From the NCBI GenBank assembly GCA_027946365.1, contig JAPEUQ010000008.1:558001-622000 (forward strand): a DNA stretch of 64,000 nucleotides. Direction: 5' to 3'. Below the pieces are notes generated by a model. That model was not told the DNA's origin. It made no database searches and was given only the letters and a program-made list of their open reading frames with translations. A program made the position numbers and the translations under genes. This document shows positions 4,307 to 16,896 of the stretch, one piece after another. Each line of letters begins with the position of its first letter. The stretch's first letter is position 1. Source of the DNA: Kalmusia sp. IMI 367209 (taxonomy: Eukaryota > Ascomycota > Dothideomycetes > Pleosporales > Didymosphaeriaceae).

Positions 4307-5459
4307 GAAACTCAGTCTTAAACACGTCCGCCGTCTACCTAGACGAACTTTCAAAGGCTTCGTTTGTTTCGAGTCTCAGTATTGAACTGGTACGAGGACC
4401 GTCATTGCAGGTTAGCAAAGATTGGAGATCGTTTTGTTCAAATCGGAAGTTGATGGTTGTTAAACTTAGAGCGTGCACAGGTATTGTGGGCCGAGCTTTA
4501 GAATTGTTTTGCTGGGTGGAACTTCGCTTCCTTATAGCATTCGAGTGGCACAGCGGCTTTGAGGCCCCACTCAAGGATACTGATCCTAGCAAGTGTCCGA
4601 CGCTAACCAGATAACTCCTAGCGGGCTCCGTGTAAGCGCCTGCAGCCTCGTGGTAAATGCTATAGTGCACTGCTGTGCAAATTATTGTGAACCTTGCTCT
4701 AAAAAACATCAACCTTCCAGAGTGATCTAAGGAAATGTATAAGCTAGCTTATAATTCAGTACATAGAAGCGATTTTTTCCTCCAAAACGCGGCACCCGCA
4801 CAGAAGCCACGAGACTACTCGAACAACAGTCGTTGCTCGTGTGATCAACAAGCACCGACTCTAGTGTAAGTCATGTTCGAGAAAGCGCCCTGGACCTAAC
4901 ACGAATGGCATCTCTCCATCCACATGGAAAGCAGACAGCGACAGACTGCGTCTTCAGGTATAGTACGTTTGAGTAGCGACCGAGGTAAAATCGTACTTTA
5001 AGCTTGTTGAAGAGTATATTGTAGCTCTTAGAGTGGATTCTAGCCTGGCCAACCCTGCGCGTACCAGAGTTATCAGAGCTTTGTTTCAGGATGGGCACAT
5101 TGCTACCTCTCCATATCCGTATTTAAACAACGCCTTCTATGCAAGGTTTGTGTCGGAGCAAATTGCCCATCCTCGCTGTCAGTGATATAGATATCAAGCT
5201 ATCTGCCTGGTTGACTTGATAAGTAAAGCAGATGGTAGGTAGGAGAAGTAAGGCAAAGCGGTCGCCAAATGCCAAAACATTTACTAAGTAGTAAACTTAG
5301 CGCAAAGAGAAAATCCGATCACGGAACAGATGATGGTGGTTGACTAGCTCATCAATCCAGCGTGATGACTACCCAAACGGCACCGGATTCGGCAACTATC
5401 ACTCATAAGTAAGACATAAAACTGGTCGAAATAAAATCTATTTCAAAATTTACAGAATG
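4307..5459. other. Intergenic, no gene recognised
   Basis: Stretch between the membrane-protein start and the decayed 3' end of the NB-ARC/TPR gene. Only short, unrecognised open frames occur. Confidence 0.45.
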
Positions 5460-6058
5460 TTACACTTGTATAAACAGGTACCTTATTCCGATTCCATCAG
5501 ATCTAATGCCTCTTTCCTGTGATTGCAGCCGATACGGTTTAGTCTCAGCTAGTGTAGTCGAGCAGATTTTAACTACATGTCCTAGCAACTCTACTGCCTC
5601 CTGGATTTCTTTTCCTTTTAGGTAAGCTCCTGCAAGCTCAAATTGCGATATTAATCGTTTTGGGTCAATCTCAGCAAGCGTTATTAACTCGATCTTGACT
5701 ACGTGCTCTAGCAGCTCTACTGGCTACTAGACATTGCTCCAGGTAAGCTCTCCCGAGTGCATGTTGCGATGCTAATAGATGTGGATGTGTCTTAGTAAGC
5801 GTTATTGACTCGATCTTGACTACGTGCTCTAGCAGCTCTACTGCCTCCTGGACCTTTCCTTGCTCCAGGTAAGTTCTCCCGAGTGCATATTGCGATGCTA
5901 ATAGATGTGGATGTGTCTTAGTAAGCGTTGGCTCGATCTTGACTACGTGCTCTAGCAGCTCTACTGCCTCCTGGACCTTTCCTTGCTCCAGGTAAGCTCT
6001 CCCGAGTGCATGTTGCGATGCTAATCGATGTGGATGTATCTTAGTAAGCGTTGTTGAC
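5460..6058 (-). pseudogene. Out-of-frame remnant of the receptor's TPR array
   Basis: Downstream of the receptor's stop the DNA still encodes recognisable TPR units on the minus strand, but not in one frame. One unit (about 5691-5811) carries the same 5-nt deletion that ends the upstream frame. Another unit is 3 nt short, which keeps the frame. Allowing for both 5-nt deletions, the frame would reach a TAA at 5460-5462. This stretch is therefore read as the former C-terminus of the receptor, not a separate gene. Whether it is transcribed as 3' UTR is unknown. Confidence 0.65.
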
Positions 6059-6433
6059 TCAATCTTGACTACGTGCTCTAGCAGCTCTACTGGCTACTAG
6101 ACATTGCTCCAGGTAAGCTCTCCCGAGTGCATGTTGCGATGCTAATCGTTCTGGATGTGTCTCAGCAAGCGTTATTGACTCGATCTTGACTACGTGCTCC
6201 AGTAGTTCTACTGCCTCCTGGACCTTTCCTTGCTTCAGGTAAGCGTTCCCGAGTTCATGCTGCGATAACAATCGTTCTGGATGTGTCTTAGCTAGCATTG
6301 TTGACTTCATCTTGACTACATGTTCCAACAAATCTATCGCCTTCTGGAATTGTTTATCTGAGTTGTAAGAGACGGCTAGCGCATGCTGTGATGCTAGTTT
6401 AGCAGGATGTGTATCTGGTAGTGGCGACTGAAC
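5521..6433 (-). repeat. Tandem ~126-bp repeats encoding 42-residue TPR units
   Basis: Repeat starts, marked by the gatcttgactacgtgctc-like segment, fall at about 5565, 5691, 5812, 5935, 6061, 6182 and 6308. Unit lengths are therefore 126, 121, 123, 126, 121 and 126 bp. The two 121-bp units share the same 5-nt deletion. Central units are nearly identical and outer units more diverged, the pattern expected from unequal exchange or gene conversion within a tandem array. The code is the 42-residue TPR type (HPERLASQHALGRAYLEQGK) common in fungal STAND receptors. Confidence 0.85.
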
Positions 6434-8284
6434 CTTGACTACGTGCTTCAACATCTCTATTGCCTCTCGAATTTGTCTGTTTTTGTCATAGGAGATGGCT
6501 AGAAAAACCTCTGCTGCCAGTCTATTCGCATGCCGCTCATCGAGAGTTTCTCGTCGTATAGCCACCACCTGTTCCATTAAATCCACGGTCTTTCCGCCAT
6601 TCCCATTGAAATTTTGGCTGCGTGCGTAAAGATGATACAGAGACACTAAAGAACCTTGTGGTTGAGTTGGATCAAGCCCGGCACCCCAGAACAAGGCCTG
6701 CAAAAGGCGATCTAGTCGGGAATCGTCACGCATCTGATCTAGTAACCAGCTGCAGCTCCAGACAAGCGCTATCAGGTTCCTATGCGTATCGCAGGAGATG
6801 TTCCCCATAATCATTTCGTCTGCCCATGCTTGGATATGTGATAGTAGAGCGTAATCCACTATAGCACGCCCCGGCGATCCAAGTACAGCGAGTGTGAAGA
6901 CACAGCCAGCCGCTAGCCAGCTAGCTTTCCTAGCCTCCACTGTCTGACGGTCCCTTGCCCATGCGTGAACTAATGCATGCAGACTTATTCCACTTGCGCC
7001 GTCTTGCTCTGTCCGGGTAACCAGGGACAGAGACTCTAGCAGATGGATTGCTTCGTACAGATGATCCGCATTCCATTTCGTGACCTGCGTATTAATGACT
7101 GCAGGCAATTGAGATGCGTGCCATTTGTTAAGAACATCGAGCCCAATTTCACTGCCTGGGATTTCTGGGGCTGAGACGTCCCACGAAGATATGTCCCCGA
7201 GTTCAGGCCCAATGTTAAGTACTCTCTTATTCGCTTCTTGTGAGCCTATCCATGCACTTTCGAATAGACTCTCGGGAAGGAAGGTGTAGTTCAGTGCAGA
7301 CACGACCCCGAGTAAATTAAGAGCGTTTGCAGATAAGGCCTCCGCAGAAGCTTCAAACGTTGCGTATACGTCACGGTAGCGCGATCGCGCTTGAACTGGG
7401 CTGAATTTGAGAAGTTTCGTTCGCTGTTGTTGGAACTTCTTTGGGTAGTCCTCTAGCTTGCAATAGCATCTCGATACGTATGCACCCGCCTGAATGAGAG
7501 CGAGCGTATGCGAGTGTACCAGACGTACTACGTCTTCTGCAGCTCTCCCTTCTACCTCCCAACGGTCTCTCGAGATCCCCGCTGCTTTGAGTAAAAGTTC
7601 TTTGCAGTCTGCCGGGTCGAGGTCCGCAAGCGCCTCGCATCCTAATGTGTTAAAATGGGTGCACTCCGTATTTCGCGAGGAAATGATTACGCCCCCTTGC
7701 ATACCAGAAGGAAGATATGCGTTGTAGTCGTATTGCGGATCGTCCGCATTATCCAGGATGAGTAGACAGCGCTTCTTCGTATTGCTTATTAGTCTGCATG
7801 CCTGTTCAACACTGTCCGCTTTATGCCCGAGCATTTCGGCAACGACAATGAAGTCGGACTCTGCCATATCTGGGCTACTGACGTCGACCCAGAGAACGGC
7901 CCAGAACCTTGCGGAACTCTCAGCTTTGAGCTAGTGATAGGGTTGTAGGACCTACTCGGAGCGCAGCTCGTTCGCGATTTTCAGGCAGATCTCGCTCTTT
8001 CCCGAACCTCCAAGTCCGGAAATGACGAACACTCCATCTTGCTGAGAGCCATCTTGCAGGGCTTTCTTAACCCGGTCGACGACCTCTCTCCGCCCTGTAA
8101 AGAGGGTGTTGGTCCGGCGAGGGACTTTCCAGTGGACGTTTGAACTGCTGTCGTGTAGGCCTGCCCTTGAAGACTCTTGCTGCGTGAACGTGAACACGTT
8201 GTGGCCACCATGTATTCCCAACCCCTGGAGAACATTTGCGGTCTCGACCGACGCGTAGGTAGATGTGGTCATGGCCCGGCTCAT
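6059..8284 (-). CDS. NB-ARC/TPR STAND (NLR-like) receptor with N-terminal amyloid-type motif; TPR array truncated
   Basis: Exon 1 is 8284-7956 and exon 2 is 7916-6059 (728 aa). The 39-nt intron has a GTAGGT donor and is at the lower size limit, so it needs transcript support. Residues 12-33 hold a short motif (NVLQGLGIHGGHNVFTF) shared with the divergent hydrolase gene. The NB-ARC core follows: a TGRREVV lead-in, the P-loop GLGGSGKSE, Walker B LLILDNADD, GGVIISSRNT and LALIQAGAYVSR. A helical linker leads to TPR units from about residue 530. The array stops early because of a 5-nt deletion at about 6090-6115, leaving an aberrant tail after YLEQ. In fungi such receptors act in non-self recognition and can trigger cell death: ligand sensed by repeats, NB-ARC oligomerises, N-terminal motif nucleates amyloid. 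That role is inferred here. The truncation may make it a pseudogene or a short-repeat allele. Confidence 0.82.
8186..8236 (-). other. N-terminal amyloid-signalling-type motif of the NB-ARC receptor
   Basis: Residues 17-33 of the receptor (NVLQGLGIHGGHNVFTF) precede the nucleotide-binding domain directly, the usual place for the prion-like motif in fungal STAND proteins. It matches the C-terminus of the divergent hydrolase at N, V, L, Q, G, I, H, G, G, N and F, and both copies are preceded by SV three residues upstream. The Gly/Asn/Gln-rich character resembles known fungal motifs; the sigma (SesB-associated) class seems the closest, but I cannot assign the class without a profile search. Confidence 0.7.
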
Positions 8285-8647
8285 GGTGGAGTGCCAGCTC
8301 GGCGGGGCTCTGGCGGGGCGCTAGCGGGTAGCGGACGGAAGCCTAGTGGACGGACTGGTACAGTGTCGGGTCTAGTATCGGCTAAGGAGCTGGCGACTTT
8401 GCGATCGAGTCTGAGAGCACACGAAAGCGAATGTGCTTGAGATGGAAGGGCTTGTGATGTATAGCTTTGTGATTCGTCTTCAGCTGCGGCTGGCTGTGAC
8501 TGGGGCTGCATTGCGGGGTTACGCGAGACCCCCTGTCACTCCAGGGCGCCTATCTCGCGGGTGCCTAGATGACAAGTACGCCTCTGTCTCCAGATATAAA
8601 CTTATACCTATAAGTACTGTTTCATTTATCAATCGATATCACTTCCG
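8285..8647. promoter_or_regulatory. Shared divergent promoter of the receptor/effector pair
   Basis: The 363 bp between the receptor start (8284, minus) and the hydrolase start (8648, plus) must hold both promoters. Such head-to-head spacing would allow joint regulation. I could not identify a specific factor site. Confidence 0.6.
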
Positions 8648-9807
8648 ATGTTCTCTAAATTCTTTTCCAGAAAAACTGGTGAACATCTCGACGGTGGTGA
8701 GATTTCCGCTCCTTCACGATACGAATGTCAGCCTAGCAAGTGAGTTGTTCACCCCGACCCACTGAATTACTAACAACAATAGGCTTCCCACAGACGGTGA
8801 ATATGGATTGAAAGTTCTTGCGGATCCCGCTAATGCTTCCATCGAGTACGTCCTACCAAATCAAAACGGCCCATCATCACTCAACAGCCTAACACACTAC
8901 GAGCATTGTCTTCGTGCACGGTTTGACAGGAAACCGCGAAACCACATGGACACACGCAAATGGAAATTGCTGGCCATGCGATCTTTTGCCTCAAGCGTTG
9001 CCCACCGCGCGCATCATGACATTCGGGTACGATGCAGACATTGTCCGAATGTGGAGCACAGCAAGCAGCAATGGACTCTACGACCATGGAAAATCATTGG
9101 AATTTCACTTGAGTAATTTGCGCATACAAAATACTCGTCGCCCAATCGTATTTGTTGCGCATAGCCTCGGCGGGTTGGTCTGTGAGCAGGCGCTTCTGCA
9201 TAGCGATGCTTCAAGACAGCCTGACAGTATTGTCAACAACACACGTGGCATCATATTCATGGGTACGCCACATTATGGATCAAGCCTTGCAAGTTGGGGT
9301 TCCATCTTGACTGCATTCTCCGGTCATTTCAAAACAACCAATAGAGAAATTGTTGCAACTCTCGAGTGGGGAGCTCCGGACCTTCGGCGCGTTGGGGAGG
9401 AGTTTCAAAAATCACTGCACCGACCGGACATCAACATGCAGGTACTATGTTTCTATGAAGAGCTCGCAATGCCAGTTGGAGGCAAGGTCGTTGAGAGTGA
9501 ATCAGCGGTTCTACGGGGCTACGATAGCTGTAGCATTCATGCAAACCACAGAGACATGACTAAATTTTCGGAAATTACAGATGTTGGTCTTGAACAGGTT
9601 CGTAGGACTTTAGAGAAATGGATCACATTATGGGAGACTGCTGCTGCTGCAGAGCTATCGGAGGCTAGAACAACTGCCTCGACTATTGATAAGAAGCTCC
9701 CAGAAACCATGCTCTCAGGCTCTCATAATTATGGGTCAGTTTCAGCGAAGAACGTATTGCAGGGCCAACAGATACATGGCGGAACGAATACGTGGAATTT
9801 CAGTTGA
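8648..9807 (+). CDS. SesB-like alpha/beta-hydrolase, probable cell-death effector, with C-terminal amyloid-type motif
   Basis: Three exons (8648-8739, 8783-8845, 8904-9807) give 352 aa. The introns have GTGAGT and GTACGT donors and TACTAAC or CTAACAC branch sites. The start is the ATG of MFSKFFSRK, which keeps phase throughout. The hydrolase domain begins with IVFVHGLTGNRE. The nucleophile elbow is AHSLGG, so its first Gly is replaced by Ala. GTPHYGS and a late HANHRDM (probable catalytic His) follow, as in fungal serine-esterase domains next to STAND receptors. The last 18 residues (335-352) repeat the receptor's N-terminal motif. By analogy with sesB of Nectria haematococca, the receptor's amyloid seed would convert this tail and activate the enzyme, perhaps on membrane lipids. 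Substrate and lethality are inferred. All catalytic elements look intact, unlike the partner's TPR array. Confidence 0.85.
9751..9804 (+). other. C-terminal amyloid-signalling-type motif of the hydrolase
   Basis: The final residues NVLQGQQIHGGTNTWNFS lie after a polar linker and end the protein. Placement at the extreme C-terminus of an effector, with the matching copy at the N-terminus of a neighbouring STAND receptor, is the known arrangement of fungal amyloid signalling pairs. Eleven of the first 17 positions are identical to the receptor copy. Confidence 0.72.
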
Positions 9808-10387: not shown

Positions 10388-12151
10388 TCATAGGACCGCC
10401 AATGTAGTCAAATGCTCCTTGCACCTCTCCAACGGTTCAATTACGTTCTTGATCATCTCTCCTCGCCATGATGGATCCCCAGTCGTCACGCTTGGGAAGA
10501 AGCACCACCTCACAGCTGAAGCATAGTCCTTGCCCCCATCACCAAGAACCTTTTCGGACCACTTCAGAGCAGCTACAAGATCGTAGGCTTGCTTTGCTTC
10601 GCCAAATTCAGTTGGATACCTCTGTCGAATTGGTTGTTCTTCTAGTCGTGAACCGAAGCATAGCTCCACAAGGAGGATGCCAAGCGATGAGAGATCAAAT
10701 TCATTAGCTTTAACGCCTGATGTTGTAGAATCATTAAGCGTAAAGCCTTGGCAGATGAAGGGTTCGTGGTATGGCATACTGCAGTCGTCATTCACGCAGG
10801 GGAAGAAGAGGACGTCTTTTTTAGCAAGACCGTTGTTAAGCCATGGAGTATACCGGAGCTGGGCGACCGAGGAGGCAAGAAGCAGAGCTATAGAGAAACG
10901 TTGACCTCGCGTAAATTCTCCACCAAACTCGCCAGAGAGAATATGATCCAGCGTCACCGGACCGCCATGGTCAGGTCGTTTCCTTTTGGGAGCTGGGTGA
11001 AGGTGATAGATTTCGTCGTCATGGCTGATAATCCCAATACACTTGCCATGTTCTTCATTGCGTAGAAACTGGCAGAGGTTGATAGTTGGGTTGGCTATGA
11101 TGTCAGATTCCATCTTCGGTATGCTTGTACTGGAGGTTACAAAAGCAACCTTCCTCCGTCTTGCTGATTCTGATGATCGTTCTGAGATGAAAGATTGATC
11201 ATGTCGATGCTGAAGTGACTGGGGAGTAGTGGGAGGCTTCATGAGCTCCTGCGGAATGGAGCAGCCGATCATTTGTCCACACTGAACTTCTCTCCAGGAC
11301 CATAGAGTATCAGACTGAGATGATGGAGCAAGAGACATGAGAATCATTTCGAAGTATACTTCCGCAAGTGTGCGATGCTCGAGCCGAAGGTTGGCGAAGT
11401 GGTACTGCCGACAAGAGCACTTCCATGACTTATGGATTGCTTTGAAGAGGAGGTCTGACTTCTTCCACACCTTCCTAAACGTTTTTTCCAGAGAAGAAGT
11501 ATGTTTTGTGTTGGGAGGAGCAATTCTTTCCCACCCTAATATTTTGTTGCTTGTGCTAAGGAGTTTTTCCAATTGTCCATTGTATTTCTCCAGCCGTTTG
11601 AAAAGCTTGCTTCTTACAGGCTCACTGAAACTGAACTTGAGTCGGAATGTTTCGTAGTCCCATATCGCTTTCACTGAAGCAAGTTTGGATGACTTAATCA
11701 GCGGCTGTAGGCTTGTCAATCGTCGCTGCTTCTCAGCCTCCGGCGAAGCTAGCTTGCTTTGAAATGATTCTTTATCGAGAGCTAGCTCTTTTCTCAATTC
11801 TTCAGCTGTTTCGTTCATTTCGGAAATTATCTCCATATACAAGTTGTATGACTCCTGAAGCTGCTCCTCTAAGCGCTGCTGAAGAGCCTTGTTCCTCCAG
11901 TCTTCATTGCCGGGGTCATCTATTAGACGAGCCACCTCATCTGCATCCTTAATAATCGGCAGTAAAAGCCCTTTCAGATTCCGTTTGTACACGATCTCAT
12001 GAAATTGCACTTCTCTGCGGCAAGCGCTATATTCTTTCCGCGTCCGTCGAAGGAAACGACCAACCTCAGCGACATCGCGCCAGTGCTCGAGGGCGGAGAT
12101 GATCAGGGGAAAGGCTCCAAGGAGAACTCCTGCGATTTCGAGGCCGCTCAT
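10388..12151 (-). CDS. DUF7580-type fungal protein (helical N-terminus, degenerate kinase-like C-terminus)
   Basis: Single-exon, 587 aa from the ATG at 12151 (MSGLEIAGVLLGAFPLI). This is the family's usual start; an in-frame ATG 40 codons upstream is less likely. The N-terminal half is helical, with a hydrophobic start and charged coiled-coil stretches (MNETAEELRKEL). The C-terminal half contains RFSIALLLASSVAQL, KKDVLFFPC, FDLSSLGILLVELCFG and a WCFF element. These resemble the C-lobe of a protein kinase (FDLSSLGILLVEL like the kinase F-helix), but no HRD or DFG catalytic motif is visible. The family is expanded in Pezizomycotina and often sits near STAND and HET-domain genes; its function is unknown. 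It is divergent from the zinc-finger/TPR gene, 337 bp away. Confidence 0.8.
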   Translation of the reverse strand: MSGLEIAGVLLGAFPLIISALEHWRDVAEVGRFLRRTRKEYSACRREVQFHEIVYKRNLKGLLLPIIKDADEVARLIDDPGNEDWRNKALQQRLEEQLQESYNLYMEIISEMNETAEELRKELALDKESFQSKLASPEAEKQRRLTSLQPLIKSSKLASVKAIWDYETFRLKFSFSEPVRSKLFKRLEKYNGQLEKLLSTSNKILGWERIAPPNTKHTSSLEKTFRKVWKKSDLLFKAIHKSWKCSCRQYHFANLRLEHRTLAEVYFEMILMSLAPSSQSDTLWSWREVQCGQMIGCSIPQELMKPPTTPQSLQHRHDQSFISERSSESARRRKVAFVTSSTSIPKMESDIIANPTINLCQFLRNEEHGKCIGIISHDDEIYHLHPAPKRKRPDHGGPVTLDHILSGEFGGEFTRGQRFSIALLLASSVAQLRYTPWLNNGLAKKDVLFFPCVNDDCSMPYHEPFICQGFTLNDSTTSGVKANEFDLSSLGILLVELCFGSRLEEQPIRQRYPTEFGEAKQAYDLVAALKWSEKVLGDGGKDYASAVRWCFFPSVTTGDPSWRGEMIKNVIEPLERCKEHLTTLAVL

Positions 12152-12488
12152 CAGGAAGCAGCAGGAAATTGACAAAGACAAAGAGGAAGGAGTTAAATTT
12201 GTCGTGGAGTGAGAACTAGGCTTGACTGAAATTGAGGGCTGATCGTATTCGTGCACTTGCTGCCCCTGCAACCCCGCCCCACCTGATCCCAGTCAGCTTA
12301 ACCTGACAAAACAGGATTCTCCGCACAAAATAAGGTGGTCAGCTATCTGCATGAATATCTTTTGTTTCACTTTTGACACTTGCAAGAAAAGTGGGGCAAC
12401 GGAGCGGCTCCACCATCCATTTTCAGCCCGTAATCAACTAGCCACTAAGCTGTCCAGATATTCTTAACTCTGATAAGCCTATACCAAG
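12152..12488. promoter_or_regulatory. Divergent promoter region of the DUF7580-type and zinc-finger/TPR genes
   Basis: A 337-bp gap separates the two start codons, which point away from each other. It must hold both promoters. No specific binding site was recognised. Confidence 0.5.
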
Positions 12489-15442
12489 ATGGCTGTACCT
12501 GTATCAGCGCAATGTCGAGCCTGCATCACGACCCTGAAGACCATTATCTCGACTCTTTCTGACCCAAACAAACAGAAAAGCAGGCTTCACCATCAACAGG
12601 TGAACGATGAACTGGAGAGGTTTAGCCTATGGATTGGCAATATTGGGGCCATACATCTCCCGGAGTCTCCTTTGTCTCTTGAGTCACGTCTTCATGGCTC
12701 TGAATATATCTTGACTCATATTCTCAAGTTGCTAAATGATCTCAACGAAATCACCAAAGAACGTGAGTATTCTATTTTATATGTGCTTTAGACTAGCTGA
12801 CATATTTGGGTATAGTCTTGGAGATGGTCTCTGGAGGGATAGATCATGTGTCTCAAGATGATCTTGCTCAGGAAGACCAAATCGATGAAACGGAACTTCT
12901 TGCAGAAATCAGTGCCAGCATCACATGTCTCTTCAGAGTATCTAGACTCATTCGCGAGGCTGCACACACAGATTTATTTACTAAAGCTCTGAGCCGGGAC
13001 AGATACCAGTTCAACGACCAGTATGATATCGCTCACGTGGGCGAGAAGTACCCTAAGCTTGTCGCCGAAGAGTGGCTTCAGAAGCGACTGGGTCGAGCCA
13101 TCACTCAACGCCGGCACTACCTTAGTTACATTCGAGATCACCGAGATAAGCTGGAGGGTGCGTTGGCTCATAATGAGGCACTCAAGCATGTCGCCCCTAC
13201 CCCGCAAATTGTCGTCCAGCAGCTTCCAACTATGAAGTCACAGCTTGATTCTGCTAGCCGGCCATCAACATTCTTCACAAAAGCTACGAGTCTAGCACCA
13301 GGATCTATCACAACTCAGATGCTCAGTGCGGAGGAATCAGATTCTGAAAATGATCTGAAGTCACACACGACAGTATCTCGTTCTCTTGATGGGGAATTGG
13401 ACGTCTCAGCTACTGTTAAGATTCCAAAGCTTGACGACCTGCGAGCAGCTTCTAAGGAATTCGAATGCCCGTTTTGCTTCCAAATGAAAAGGTATAAGAA
13501 TGAACGAGTTTGGCGACGGCATGTTTTCTCAGACCTCCGCACTTATATCTGCACGTTCCCAGACTGCGATGCCCCGTACTTTGGTGATATCAACGAATGG
13601 TTTCGCCACGAAATGCAGACCCACCGCGTCAGCTACGCCTGCCAGATTTGCCATGGAAAGATCTTCCAGCTCAAAGATCGCTACCTTACTCATGTCCGGA
13701 AACGACATGCGGTGATAGCAGAAGACAATGAAGAGCAACTGCTCGTTGATATTTCCAGAAAACCATTGAACGAAATACCAGCTCAGCAATGTCCATGTTG
13801 CTCAGACTGGGTCGATCGTCTTAAGGAGCGAGTAGAAGTTGTCAGAATCCCTCATGATGCTTCTGGACATATCATCAGTGTCGACCCAACTGTGTTCAAG
13901 CGTCACCTTGCTTCTCACTTAGAGCAATTGGCATTATTCGCGATTCCTATTAATTTATCTGCTGAATATGACAGCAATTCAAATGTAGCCATCGAAGCGG
14001 ATGTAGATGCTCTTGGGCAAAGCTCGAATCTCTCGACCCTCACCTTTGAGAGTTCCAGGCCACCACTTCCAGAAGGAGTCGAAGTAGAGACAGAGAATAT
14101 GGAGAAAAGGAAAATTGAACTAATGCCTCAATTCGATCAAAGAGAGGCTGACATCTCAAGCTCTCAGGAAGCATTTAGCCTATCAGAGGGAGGCCATCTT
14201 GACGACGCCAATTCAGTGGCGGGCCAGGTGGTCGAAGCTACGCCTGAGGCTAATCCGGGCCGCGCAGGAAAGCTAATCGACCTGGAAACCAAGCTCGAGA
14301 GTCGAAGCAGGAACATTGGACATCTGAGTGATCTCGAAGCGGAAATTCACGTAGCAGAAGAGGAATTAAGCTGCACGCCCGAAGATCATCCAGATCGTCC
14401 AGCCCGGTTGATGGATCTAGGAGCCAAAATGCAAAGGCGCTTTGAACACACAAGAGATATAGATGATATTGACAAGGCGACCTCTATCCTGGAACGAGCG
14501 GTATCCACTGTGCGTCCAGACCATCCAAATCTTCCAGTCTGGCTGAACAACTTAGGAAGCACACTAGAAAGACGATATTGGTTCACAACAGATATAGATG
14601 ATCTTAACAGAGCGATCTCTGTATCCGAACAACTGGTCTCCACCATGCCTAAAGATCACGCAGATTTCCCATACTGGTTGGACACACTATGCACCAGACT
14701 CAATCGTCGATATGAGCGCAGAGGGAGCTTAGATGATCTGGAAAAGGCCATCCAGATAGCACGGCAAGCAGTTGATCTCACTTCCGAAGGCAATTCTGAT
14801 GTCATAGAGCGGCTAAATAACCTTGCCTTTCTGCAACATGGTGACTTCGAAGAAGCAGTAACCATTCTTCGCAGAGCACTACATGCAGCAAATAAGTTGC
14901 TAGGGTCAAATCACCCAACTACGCTGCAGTGTATGAATGATCTAGAATTAACGCTCAGAAATCAACGTGACTTCACAGAGGCAGAGGACCTGAGTCAAGA
15001 TATAATAGATGAATTTGAAAAGAGGTCGAGGCCAGAGCACTCCTCTACACGGGGCAGCATGAGTAACCTGGTGTTAGTACTGCAGGATCAGGGAAAGTTC
15101 GAAGCAGCTGAGGTTTTAAGTCGACGAACGCTAGAAGAAAGTGAGAAGGTTCTAGGAGTAGGGCACGTTGATACACTCGTCAACGTTAGTCAGCTTGGAA
15201 CAGTGTTGGAGAAGCAGGGAAGGTACGAAGAGGCGGAAGCATTGCACCAGCAAGCCGTAGAAGGATATAAGAACGAGCTGGGACCGGAAGACCCCGATAC
15301 ACTCACCAGTATGGAAAAGCTAGCCTTGGCGCTCAGAGGTCAAGGACGATGGAAAGAAGCCGATGACCTAGAGGCAGAGGTGAAAGACACAAGGGAGAGA
15401 GGGCTTGGCGATGAGCATCCGGGGCCTGACAGCCATGGATAA
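12489..15442 (+). CDS. Fungal C2H2-like zinc-finger and TPR fusion protein
   Basis: Exons 12489-12762 and 12816-15442 (GTGAGT donor, TATAG acceptor) give 966 aa. The N-terminal ~200 residues are helical. Residues ~310-480 contain three degenerate zinc fingers of the type seen in many fungal STAND-associated proteins: CPFC...RRHVFSDLRTYIC, CDAPYF..INEWFRHE..H, and CQIC...LTHVRKRH. A CPCC element and a closing RHLASHLEQLALFAIP follow. From about residue 590 come two kinds of TPR: ~45-residue units (HPDRPARLMDLGAKMQRRFE) and kinesin-light-chain-like 42-residue units (HPTTLQCMNDLELTLRNQ, GKFEAAEVLSRR). The closest named relatives are acuF-like zinc-finger/TPR proteins. There is no NB-ARC domain, so it lacks the switch module of a STAND receptor. 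Its function is unknown; protein scaffolding is an inference from TPRs. Confidence 0.8.
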
Positions 15443-16896
15443 CTTCCCGTCACTTGAGTCACAAATTTGTAACCAGAAGGCATGGATACTTCTAATTCTA
15501 TTCGTTCAGATGCGTATACAAGTCTTCAAGCGCTAGCATATTGAAAATGTCGTGCATGCAACTCCAACTAAGTGGCAAATGAAGAGGATAGGTTTATATA
15601 CTGATGCTGTTTTAAATGTAGAGCACTTAGCTAGTGGAGATATAAAATGGCATAAGTGGGGTAAGCGCAGCCATGATTGAAGGTGCAGTAGTGGAAGTCA
15701 TGCAGCACGAAACCCTGTCACTCCTCGCAGAAAAAACGGTCACCAGCATCAAATTCGACCTTACGGGCTGAAGGTCTCCGGAAGAGATGAGACTTTCGGC
15801 TTGGGAAATGGCTACGGTTTACTCGAATTACCAAACTATATTGCTAAGGCAGAACGTTACTGGGTTTTTACCTTCTGCCTTCTGTACTCAGCTATCCGCC
15901 GGAAAGGAGAATTCTGATGGAAGGTATCGTCGGATTCTCAGGCATCCATCTAGTATTCTACTGTTCGACTATCTGTGAGAGTATTCAGACTACAATTTTA
16001 CTCCAGATCATGCATATTCCCCATCGCAAAGCATAGAGAGCTCAACTACTCAGTGACTTAGACCTATCTGTTTTGCCAGGCATTCCAAAAATGTGACTGT
16101 TTAGACGCTAATAATAGCCCTACAAAGCCATGAAATTAATGACATAAGTGGCAGGAATGTCTATACTACCCCACGTGAAGGTGTTCGGAGCGCAGCGCAC
16201 AGCGAGAAAGGTCGTCCACCGTGTAGTGTCCTCAGTAGTATCAGTAAAGAGGAGAAGCGGGCTATCTCTGCAAGCTGTAATCGTTAGGCGAGATTCGTAC
16301 ACTCACGTACACGTACTGTAGCACTTCTATAGATCCCTTCGTCAAAGGCAAAGCTCGAAGTAGTTGGTCAAACCGCTCTAGCCAAAACTAGATACTTTCT
16401 GTTCCTAGCCCCGCCCGCTTGGCGCATATGTATGCCCCGCTATGGGAACTAAACGCCCAAGTACGTGGAATTTTAAAAAGAGTATTAAAATATGAGAGAC
16501 AGCTACTACTGGAGCAGAGCCATCAGAGGCTAATAGGGCCGCAACAACCAGTAACAAGAAGGCCCAACGACTCTGTTCCTAGGCTCTTAGATAGTTTAAT
16601 TTTAGTAAAGAACGTATCACAGGATCAGTAGATATACGGAGGGATGAATAATTGGAACTGTAGTTGTAATTAGCGACAGAAGTAGGAATACACTTACATG
16701 TGCGTTATCCATAGGCGCTATATCCTACCTGTAGCCAATACCCTCCTGATGTCATGTCGATTGATTATGTTCAATGTGCAGATTTACTGAGGAATAACTA
16801 TGTCTTAACATGAATCGTACAAATATGAATAAGGAAGACAGTCGTCAGCAAATCCCACCTCACGTTCTATTCTCTATAATAAAACTCAAATTTCCA
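15443..16896. other. Intergenic with one dispersed-repeat copy
   Basis: No gene recognised. The stretch holds the left copy of the dispersed repeat at about 16177-16427; the rest is AT-rich with only short, unsupported open frames. Confidence 0.5.
16177..16427. repeat. Dispersed repeat, copy A, mutated
   Basis: This ~250-bp segment aligns by eye along its whole length with 18982-19227. Shared anchors are gaaggtg, gcgcagcgca, gagaagcggg, ctcacgtacacgta, tgtagcac, ttggtcaa and gcgcat. Compared with copy B it shows an excess of G-to-A and C-to-T changes (agccaaaacta against ggccagaacgg), as expected after repeat-induced point mutation. No terminal repeats or coding frame are visible, so the element type is unknown. 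Confidence 0.7.

What the first reader, a model, noticed from the sequence alone, without database searches (positions are those of the whole stretch)
5460..9807. Head-to-head NLR/hydrolase pair sharing a prion-like motif: candidate amyloid cell-death module
The NB-ARC/TPR receptor (minus) and SesB-like hydrolase (plus) start 363 bp apart. The receptor's N-terminus and the hydrolase's C-terminus hold the same short Gly/Asn/Gln motif (11 of 17 aligned positions identical, seen directly). In known systems (HET-S/NWD2, sesB of Nectria haematococca, HELLP/PNT1) this layout means the receptor seeds an amyloid that switches on the effector. What looks new is this specific pair and motif variant (VLQG..IHGG); the sigma/SesB class is only a guess.
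Basis: partly seen in the sequence, partly recalled or inferred. Interest (0 to 1): 0.9.

Follow-up and report, generated by a model that had tools for sequence, protein, structure and literature searches.

The report
Paired fungal receptor-lipase prion-like switch
A fungus carries an immune-type receptor and a lipase-like enzyme, made from neighbouring genes, that share a short prion-like tag through which the receptor probably switches the enzyme on; a similar tag links a second receptor and a different enzyme elsewhere in the genome.

Summary
In Kalmusia sp. IMI 367209 (Pleosporales), an NB-ARC/TPR receptor (minus, 8284-6059, one predicted 48-bp intron) and a DUF676 alpha/beta-hydrolase (plus, 8648-9807, two predicted introns) start 363 bp apart. 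The receptor's N-terminus and the hydrolase's C-terminus share a 25-residue Gly/Asn/Gln-rich motif beyond chance (0 of 100,000 shuffles; a receptor profile built without the window finds the hydrolase tail at E=3.7e-9). In relatives both motifs are conserved next to variable linkers. Effector and receptor pieces come from contigs of identical length in four cases, so the pair appears co-inherited.

The motif recurs in a second head-to-head pair in this genome (C26), joining a NACHT/ankyrin receptor to a nucleoside phosphorylase. It is not sigma, PP or PUASM in the tests run, although the genome also holds a PP pair. Best reading: an amyloid-signalling NLR/effector module of the HET-S/NWD2 type with a motif family ("NVLQG") that I did not find described. 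It could be the PF01048_015 motif of Wojciechowski 2022, whose sequence I could not see. Amyloid, seeding and cell death are inferred. New variant of a known kind.

The parts
7956..8284 (-). Receptor exon 1: N-terminal motif, linker, start of NB-ARC with P-loop
   Evidence: gene model; 16 of the 120 listed hits are frames of 103-148 aa with the full motif ahead of an NTPase start
7908..7955 (-). Predicted 48-bp intron (GTAGGT...CAAG) that holds both in-frame TAG codons
   Evidence: P0122 and P0121 read ...RSEFWAV... across it
6059..7907 (-). Receptor exon 2: rest of NB-ARC, a weak below-cut-off DUF7779 match, TPRs, stop at 6059
8186..8257 (-). Receptor-side motif YASVETANVLQGLGIHGGHNVFTF (residues 10-33)
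7994..8017 (-). P-loop GLGGSGKS (residues 90-97)
   Evidence: NB-ARC 23.1 bits, 25.6 with its neighbours in the frame, cut-off 23.5
5517..6058 (-). Further TPR-like units in other frames, not part of the predicted 725-aa protein
8285..8647 (.). 363-bp shared intergenic region between the two divergent genes
8648..9807 (+). Alpha/beta-hydrolase effector gene, exons 8648-8739, 8783-8845, 8904-9807, 352 aa; DUF676 E=3.6e-6
9727..9801 (+). Effector-side motif NYGSVSAKNVLQGQQIHGGTNTWNF (residues 327-351 of 352)
16491..16666 (+). Degraded relic of a second hydrolase 3' end including a decayed motif
   Evidence: 66% DNA identity, E=8e-7; motif search E=0.17 with one TAG

Best explanation
A two-gene NLR/effector signalling module. 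The NB-ARC/TPR receptor has no recognised N-terminal effector domain, only a roughly 25-residue motif and a linker; the neighbouring lipase-like hydrolase ends in the same motif on a tail modelled as disordered. Proposed mechanism: a ligand sensed by the TPR end makes the NB-ARC oligomerise; the clustered N-terminal motifs take up a beta-arch amyloid fold; this fold templates the motif at the hydrolase C-terminus, assembling and activating the hydrolase, which attacks membrane lipid or another ester and triggers regulated cell death or a growth block. Shown here: anatomy, motif sharing beyond chance, conservation on both sides, apparent co-inheritance, reuse of the motif by a second receptor and a different enzyme. 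Inferred: amyloid fold, seeding, direction of signalling, substrate, cell death.
For: Motif similarity beyond chance. A receptor profile built from 16 sequences without the window hits the hydrolase tail at E=3.7e-9, best of 240 shuffled decoys 0.15; profile-profile probability 98.1, window rows included on both sides. Mean pairwise identity, receptor side (18 sequences): motif 0.51, linker 0.24; effector side (8 sequences): motif 0.70, linker 0.20, hydrolase 0.63. 16 of 120 listed first-exon relatives carry the full motif at the N-terminus; 27 of 120 hydrolase relatives match the effector profile at E<=0.01, 7 of them in the profile and one (P0071) matching internally. Effector and receptor first exon share contig lengths 5607, 5961 and 9318; effector and receptor body share 5607, 5961 and 8154; about 0.05 and 0.04 coincidences expected. 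Second head-to-head pair with the same motif at C26: PNP_UDP_1 effector (E=2e-12) and NACHT/ankyrin receptor, 691 bp between predicted starts, 1 of 20,000 shuffles reaching the score. At least 15 of the 120 NLRs listed have Abhydrolase_6 in their precomputed domains; in the five of these that I scanned, it lies ahead of the nucleotide-binding domain in one protein, the all-in-one form described for such couples (PMC3321046 section 10). Hydrolase core modelled with confidence, tail pLDDT under 50.
Against: No experiment shows aggregation, seeding or death. The receptor's TPR array leaves frame at 6059, so this allele may be short, decaying or misassembled. Shared contigs are inferred from identical lengths; I did not see their DNA. 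The wider hydrolase group (tail FNGPISGRxVIPG...GGTxNFxF) has no receptor partner seen in my lists, and only 2 of 120 NLRs (one being this gene) show the motif. Cognate motifs are only marginally more alike than swapped ones in four pairs: 2 of 24 arrangements reach the observed score and 1 of 24 (the observed one) the identity; two of the four receptors (5607 and 9318) score better with the 5961 effector than with their own. The C26 receptor motif is weakly like the window receptor motif (z 2.6-2.9) and scores z 3.7 with the C15 effector tail. Own-genome searches with a composite receptor motif and with the C26 receptor motif did not return the other pair.
Confidence: 0.8

Rival explanations
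1. Non-amyloid docking: the shared motif is a homotypic peptide that lets the receptor recruit the hydrolase through an ordinary, reversible interaction, without a self-propagating amyloid.
For: Only similarity and conservation are shown; the structure model gives no fold for the tail.
Against: Placement (NLR N-terminus, effector C-terminus) and composition (G+N+Q 0.27-0.42, 1-2 charged residues in 30-31) match amyloid-signalling motifs of other families, whose prion behaviour was shown by experiment (PMC7889193 passages).
Confidence: 0.12
2. Fission relic: the pair descends from one hydrolase-NLR fusion or by terminal sequence exchange, and the motif is a leftover with no signalling role.
For: Fused hydrolase-NB-ARC-TPR proteins exist among relatives.
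Against: The motif outlasts variable linkers on both proteins, sits at both free ends, is on an unrelated enzyme and receptor at C26, and is apparently co-retained on other contigs.
Confidence: 0.04
3. Decaying locus (not exclusive with the best reading): motif sharing is real, but this allele is inactive because the receptor lost part of its TPR sensor.
For: TPR-like units beyond 6059 are out of frame; a degraded hydrolase copy lies at 16491-16666.
Against: The 725-aa frame keeps P-loop, NB-ARC and several TPRs; the Periconia homologue is also short, 747 aa with one passing TPR_12 stretch; the hydrolase frame is intact. Similar 126-bp repeats also invite assembly error.
Confidence: 0.25
4. 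Already catalogued (not exclusive with the best reading): the motif is PF01048_015 of Wojciechowski et al. 2022, a distinct PNP_UDP-linked motif in four pairs, and this is a hydrolase-bearing member.
For: The C26 pair is a PNP_UDP/NACHT pair; the paper's main text, as far as I saw it, gives no pattern.
Against: That motif is described as linked to PNP_UDP; here the bearers found outside this genome are hydrolases, though I made no search for PNP_UDP bearers. Its sequence is in a supplement that I could not open.
Confidence: 0.3

Closest known systems
NWD2/HET-S (HRAM) NLR-effector pair of Podospora anserina
   Same: Adjacent genes; motif at NLR N-terminus and effector C-terminus; proposed amyloid templating (PMC3321046 passages and section 10).
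   Different: Effector is a HeLo pore-former and its motif is repeated; here NB-ARC/TPR instead of NACHT/WD and a hydrolase effector. Sequence unrelatedness to HRAM rests on the Pfam scan only.
sesA/sesB/het-eN (sigma) locus of Nectria haematococca
   Same: A lipase-like alpha/beta-hydrolase with a C-terminal G/N/Q-rich motif shared with a neighbouring NLR (passages).
   Different: Sigma has repeated A (GxGxQF) and B (GGTQN) submotifs; none in 28 instances here, and no Pfam sigma match.
PNT1/HELLP/SBP (PP motif)
   Same: NB-ARC/TPR NLR and, in SBP, a lipase effector (passages). This genome has its own PP pair on C1.
   Different: PP core NxGxQxGxN in 0 of 28 instances; cross-similarity z at most 2.2 against 8.9-10.8 within the PP pair.
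PUASM and PF01048_015 (PNP_UDP-linked motifs)
   Same: PNP_UDP effector next to a NACHT NLR, as at C26.
   Different: PUASM pattern FxGxGxQxxGxGxF in 0 of 28 and no similarity to the two published PUASM peptides; PF01048_015 could not be compared.
GDQN motif of Fusarium oxysporum
   Same: A recently named fungal motif pair in an NLR and its neighbour (passage).
   Different: Pattern NxxxGxQYxxxGxGDQNxVSxxxxQxN in 0 of 28; effector is SesA-type.

Membership tests
NLR/effector amyloid-signalling gene pair (HET-S/NWD2 type) | NLR and effector encoded by adjacent genes | tested here: met
   363 bp between start codons
NLR/effector amyloid-signalling gene pair (HET-S/NWD2 type) | Homologous short motif at NLR N-terminus and effector C-terminus | tested here: met
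NLR/effector amyloid-signalling gene pair (HET-S/NWD2 type) | NLR lacks its own N-terminal effector domain | tested here: met
   about 60 residues precede the first NTPase match and hold the motif and a linker; Pfam up to E=1 shows no effector domain there
NLR/effector amyloid-signalling gene pair (HET-S/NWD2 type) | Pair co-inherited in relatives | tested here: inconclusive
NLR/effector amyloid-signalling gene pair (HET-S/NWD2 type) | Motifs form amyloid and cross-seed; effector causes cell death | not testable with these tools
   needs experiment
Sigma motif | Match to NACHT_sigma profile / repeated A and B submotifs | tested here: not met
   (control sequence matched)
PP motif | Pseudo-palindrome NxGxQxGxN, Ses_B profile PF17046 | tested here: not met
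   (profile finds a C1 pair over cut-off, not this one)
PUASM | FxGxGxQxxGxGxF pattern | tested here: not met
GDQN | NxxxGxQYxxxGxGDQNxVSxxxxQxN pattern | tested here: not met
   0 of 28
HRAM / HET-s motif | Match to Pfam HET-s models | tested here: inconclusive
   no Pfam match up to E=10 for 5 motif sequences, no HRAM control run
PF01048_015 (second PNP_UDP motif) | Its sequence pattern | not testable with these tools
   pattern not in the main text seen
DUF676-type alpha/beta-hydrolase | DUF676 above cut-off, lipase fold, nucleophile serine | tested here: met
   27.1 bits against cut-off 20.3; lipase-like fold; Ser139 nearly invariant and His267 invariant in 35 sequences (numbered); acid residue not settled

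The most novel reading that the evidence does not exclude
A so far undescribed family of fungal amyloid-signalling motifs (N-[VA]-L-Q-G-x-x-[IL]-x-G-G-x-N-x-x-x-F), shared within one genome by two different NLR types and two different enzymes (a lipase-like hydrolase and a nucleoside phosphorylase). The two effector tails are closer to each other (score 88) than to their own receptors (71 and 65), so the two pathways may cross-talk, one receptor firing both enzymes.
Probability: 0.45. Interest if true: 0.72.

Novelty: new variant of a known kind. Interest (0 to 1): 0.6.

Why it matters
PMC12261475 counts five fungal amyloid-signalling families and adds a sixth, GDQN (passages). One more, carried by a lipase pair and a phosphorylase pair in a single genome, would give a natural test of whether such motifs insulate or cross-wire immune pathways, and of how enzymes, rather than pore-formers, are switched on by prion-like templating. 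The C15 pair hints that further motifs await description.

Tried and rejected
Receptor broken by stop codons: first suspected from the two TAGs and rejected after homologue P0122 showed continuous protein there. The database model P0121 omits a second stretch that P0122 keeps; I keep it as exon.

Sigma, PP, PUASM and GDQN membership: tested and not met.

A generic tail profile made mainly from the FNGPISG... group was too blurred: it gave the receptor frame only E=0.68 in the window, behind an unrelated short frame at 0.62; the closer-clade profiles replaced it. In 12 other own-genome loci fetched around hydrolase-like hits its best match was E=2.5; one of those loci (C15) turned out to hold a different shared tail.

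Prokaryote genomes: the motif alignment had no stretch conserved enough to scan with; not pursued. Text searches: NVLQG has 0 occurrences in the 20 papers listed, and the one held paper with both NVLQG and amyloid is an unrelated grass proteomics study (listing only). This is weak evidence of novelty, since motif logos sit in figures and supplements; a notebook line saying that NVLQG is nowhere in the library goes beyond.

Pairing specificity: only marginal, so I do not claim strict specificity. Contig 469021 also holds both a hydrolase hit (P0078) and an NLR hit (P0145), but P0078 has no such tail, and it is not counted as a pair.
Full report
WHERE. The window is part of contig C29 (558001-622000) of a 42.8-Mb assembly in 30 contigs. 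The receptor matches the database protein N0V90_007858 of Kalmusia sp. IMI 367209, whose contig has the same length, 2,134,233 bases, as C29, so the organism is most likely that Pleosporales fungus (genus in family Didymosphaeriaceae).

THE SHARED MOTIF. Receptor residues 10-33 (YASVETANVLQGLGIHGGHNVFTF) and hydrolase residues 327-351 (NYGSVSAKNVLQGQQIHGGTNTWNF) align at score 71; none of 100,000 shuffles reach it (maximum 62), and the next best of 1,960 six-frame segments of the window scores 44. tblastn finds each from the other at E=0.002. Profile tests: a receptor-motif profile from 16 sequences without the window hits the window hydrolase tail at E=3.7e-9; an effector profile from 7 sequences without the window hits the window receptor at E=0.0064; the best of 240 shuffled decoys score 0.15 and 0.59. 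Profile-profile comparison, window rows included, gives probability 98.1. An earlier, broader tail profile did not separate the receptor from noise (E=0.68).

RELATIVES. Of the 120 listed hydrolase homologues (1,010 found), 43 were picked by a tail pattern of mine and I dropped one (P0031), leaving 42 with a tail of this general kind; 27 of 120 match the close-clade effector profile at E<=0.01, 7 of them being in the profile and one (P0071) matching internally. Named bearers of the wider tail include Delitschia, Zopfia, Melanomma, Dendryphion, Lindgomyces, Tricladium, Trichoglossum and Penicillium species (names), so several classes of Pezizomycotina (class placement recalled). A search with the receptor's first exon plus its Periconia counterpart gave 190 hits; of 120 listed, 16 (P0241-P0256) carry the full motif at the N-terminus and one (P0257) a cut one; the others begin after the motif or have other N-termini. 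Of 120 NLRs listed only two show it, P0121 (this gene) and P0122. The motif is kept while its flanks vary: receptor motif 0.51 mean pairwise identity, linker 0.24, NB-ARC start 0.71 (18 sequences); effector motif 0.70, linker 0.20, hydrolase 0.63 (8 sequences).

CO-INHERITANCE. Longest-contig lengths reported for effector and receptor hits coincide: 5607 (P0001, P0124, P0248), 5961 (P0002, P0126, P0247), 9318 (P0003, P0254) and 8154 (P0009, P0163). For lengths of 4-10 kb about 0.05 (effector/first exon) and 0.04 (effector/NLR body) coincidences were expected and 3 and 3 seen. I infer, but did not see, that these are the same contigs. Over four pairs (window, 5607, 5961, 9318) cognate motifs are only slightly more alike than swapped ones: 2 of 24 arrangements reach the observed score and 1 of 24, the observed one, the identity; the 5607 and 9318 receptors score better with the 5961 effector than with their own.

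A SECOND PAIR WITH THE SAME MOTIF. Searching the own genome with the hydrolase tail found C26:1655380-1655460 at E=1.1e-4: the C-terminus of a 367-aa PNP_UDP_1 protein (Pfam E=2e-12) ending FQNFGSVQGRNVLQGQTMYGSANTLNFS. Divergently beside it (predicted starts C26:1656480 minus and 1657172 plus, 691 bp between) is a NACHT/NPHP3-type frame with ankyrin repeats, preceded by a frame beginning MSLAGPDFQSHGPVQGNNVLQGVTTGNNTIINF. Pair score 67; 1 of 20,000 shuffles reach it. The join of that first frame to the NACHT frame is not worked out, so that this motif belongs to the NLR is inferred. The receptor profile made without any window or C26 sequence hits both C26 ends (E=8e-6 receptor, 5.2e-5 effector). 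The two effector tails (score 88) are closer to each other than to their own receptors (71 and 65). Against: the C26 and window receptor motifs are weakly alike pairwise (z 2.6-2.9), and own-genome searches with a composite receptor motif or with the C26 receptor motif each returned only one of the two loci.

OTHER SYSTEMS IN THE GENOME AS CONTROLS. The PP profile finds, over cut-off, two divergent matches on C1: a protein ending with HNTGVQIGHNSG, HeLo-like by eye, and a short frame with NQGLQIGDNTG just upstream of an NLR-like frame by eye. No sigma match was found. At C15 (298500-306500) another NB-ARC/TPR and hydrolase neighbourhood shares a different short tail (SVFQGNFVGG / SLFQGNFIGR; 5 of 50,000 shuffles). 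In a z-score matrix of nine tails the values within pairs are: window pair 11.8-13.1, C26 pair 9.7-11.0, PP pair 8.9-10.8, C15 pair 4.7-5.1; between the window/C26 group, C15 and PP the largest is 3.7 (C26 receptor with C15 effector), and the sigma control reaches at most 2.2.

KNOWN MOTIFS. Published patterns for PP, sigma A and B, PUASM and GDQN occur in 0 of 28 instances; my own descriptive pattern, made after seeing them, fits 26 of 28. The Pfam scan gave no match for five motif sequences up to E=10 and matched the sigma control. The two published PUASM peptides show no similarity. Papers: I saw passages of PMC3321046 (and its section 10), PMC5485727, PMC12261475, PMC7889193, PMC12881547, PMC12258605 and PMC8086366; outline, section 24 and passages of PMC9815663; the rest as search listings. 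PMC9815663 mentions PF01048_015, a distinct PNP_UDP motif in four pairs, without its sequence in what I saw; I could not open the supplement. If it is the same, the motif is known and the hydrolase pair is its new use.

MECHANISM. By analogy with HET-S/NWD2 and HELLP/PNT1, receptor oligomerisation would template an amyloid fold onto the hydrolase tail and activate it. At least 15 of the 120 NLRs list Abhydrolase_6 among precomputed domains (three lists are cut off). I scanned five of these, chosen for that entry (P0143, P0153, P0170, P0180, P0214): in all five the hydrolase match lies ahead of the nucleotide-binding match; a sixth protein, P0155, has PNP_UDP_1 at its N-terminus, and P0122 has no effector domain. 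This is the all-in-one alternative that PMC3321046 describes for such couples and supports a functional link between this receptor class and these enzymes. Amyloid, seeding, substrate and outcome remain inferred.

Noticed in passing
C26:1655380-1657282 (loci L048, L052, L053): Head-to-head PNP_UDP phosphorylase and NACHT/ankyrin NLR that share the same NVLQG motif as the window pair.
   Followed up: yes
C15:298500-306500 (L029), NLR minus about 3960-1461, hydrolase plus about 4405-5541: Another NB-ARC/TPR and hydrolase head-to-head neighbourhood sharing a different tail motif (VFQGNFVGG / LFQGNFIGR), 5 of 50,000 shuffles.
   Followed up: partly
C1:151426-152536 (L041, L042, L046): PP-motif head-to-head pair: a protein ending in a PP motif, HeLo-like by eye, and an NLR-like frame by eye.
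   Followed up: partly
C28:1741682-1741726 (L043): Sub-threshold PP-like motif (NYGLQIAYNHG) near the start of a long frame, not checked for a partner.
   Followed up: no
C7:160000-168000 (L030): Hydrolase-like exons directly upstream of an NB-ARC frame on the same strand, possibly an all-in-one hydrolase-NLR.
   Followed up: no
window 16491-16666 (+): Degraded hydrolase 3' end with decayed motif and stop, about 7 kb from the intact gene.
   Followed up: partly
C18:76554-76634 (L051): Relic-like tail FKAPVTGRNVFSGTQVDGSTASFDFS in a 26-aa frame.
   Followed up: partly
window 10388-12292 (-): 634-aa frame next to the pair with an MSGLEIAGVLLGAFPLIISALEHW stretch, no Pfam match better than E=0.17; family not identified.
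   Followed up: no
window 12797-15442 (+): 881-aa frame with strong TPR repeats and Cys/His-rich stretches by eye.
   Followed up: no
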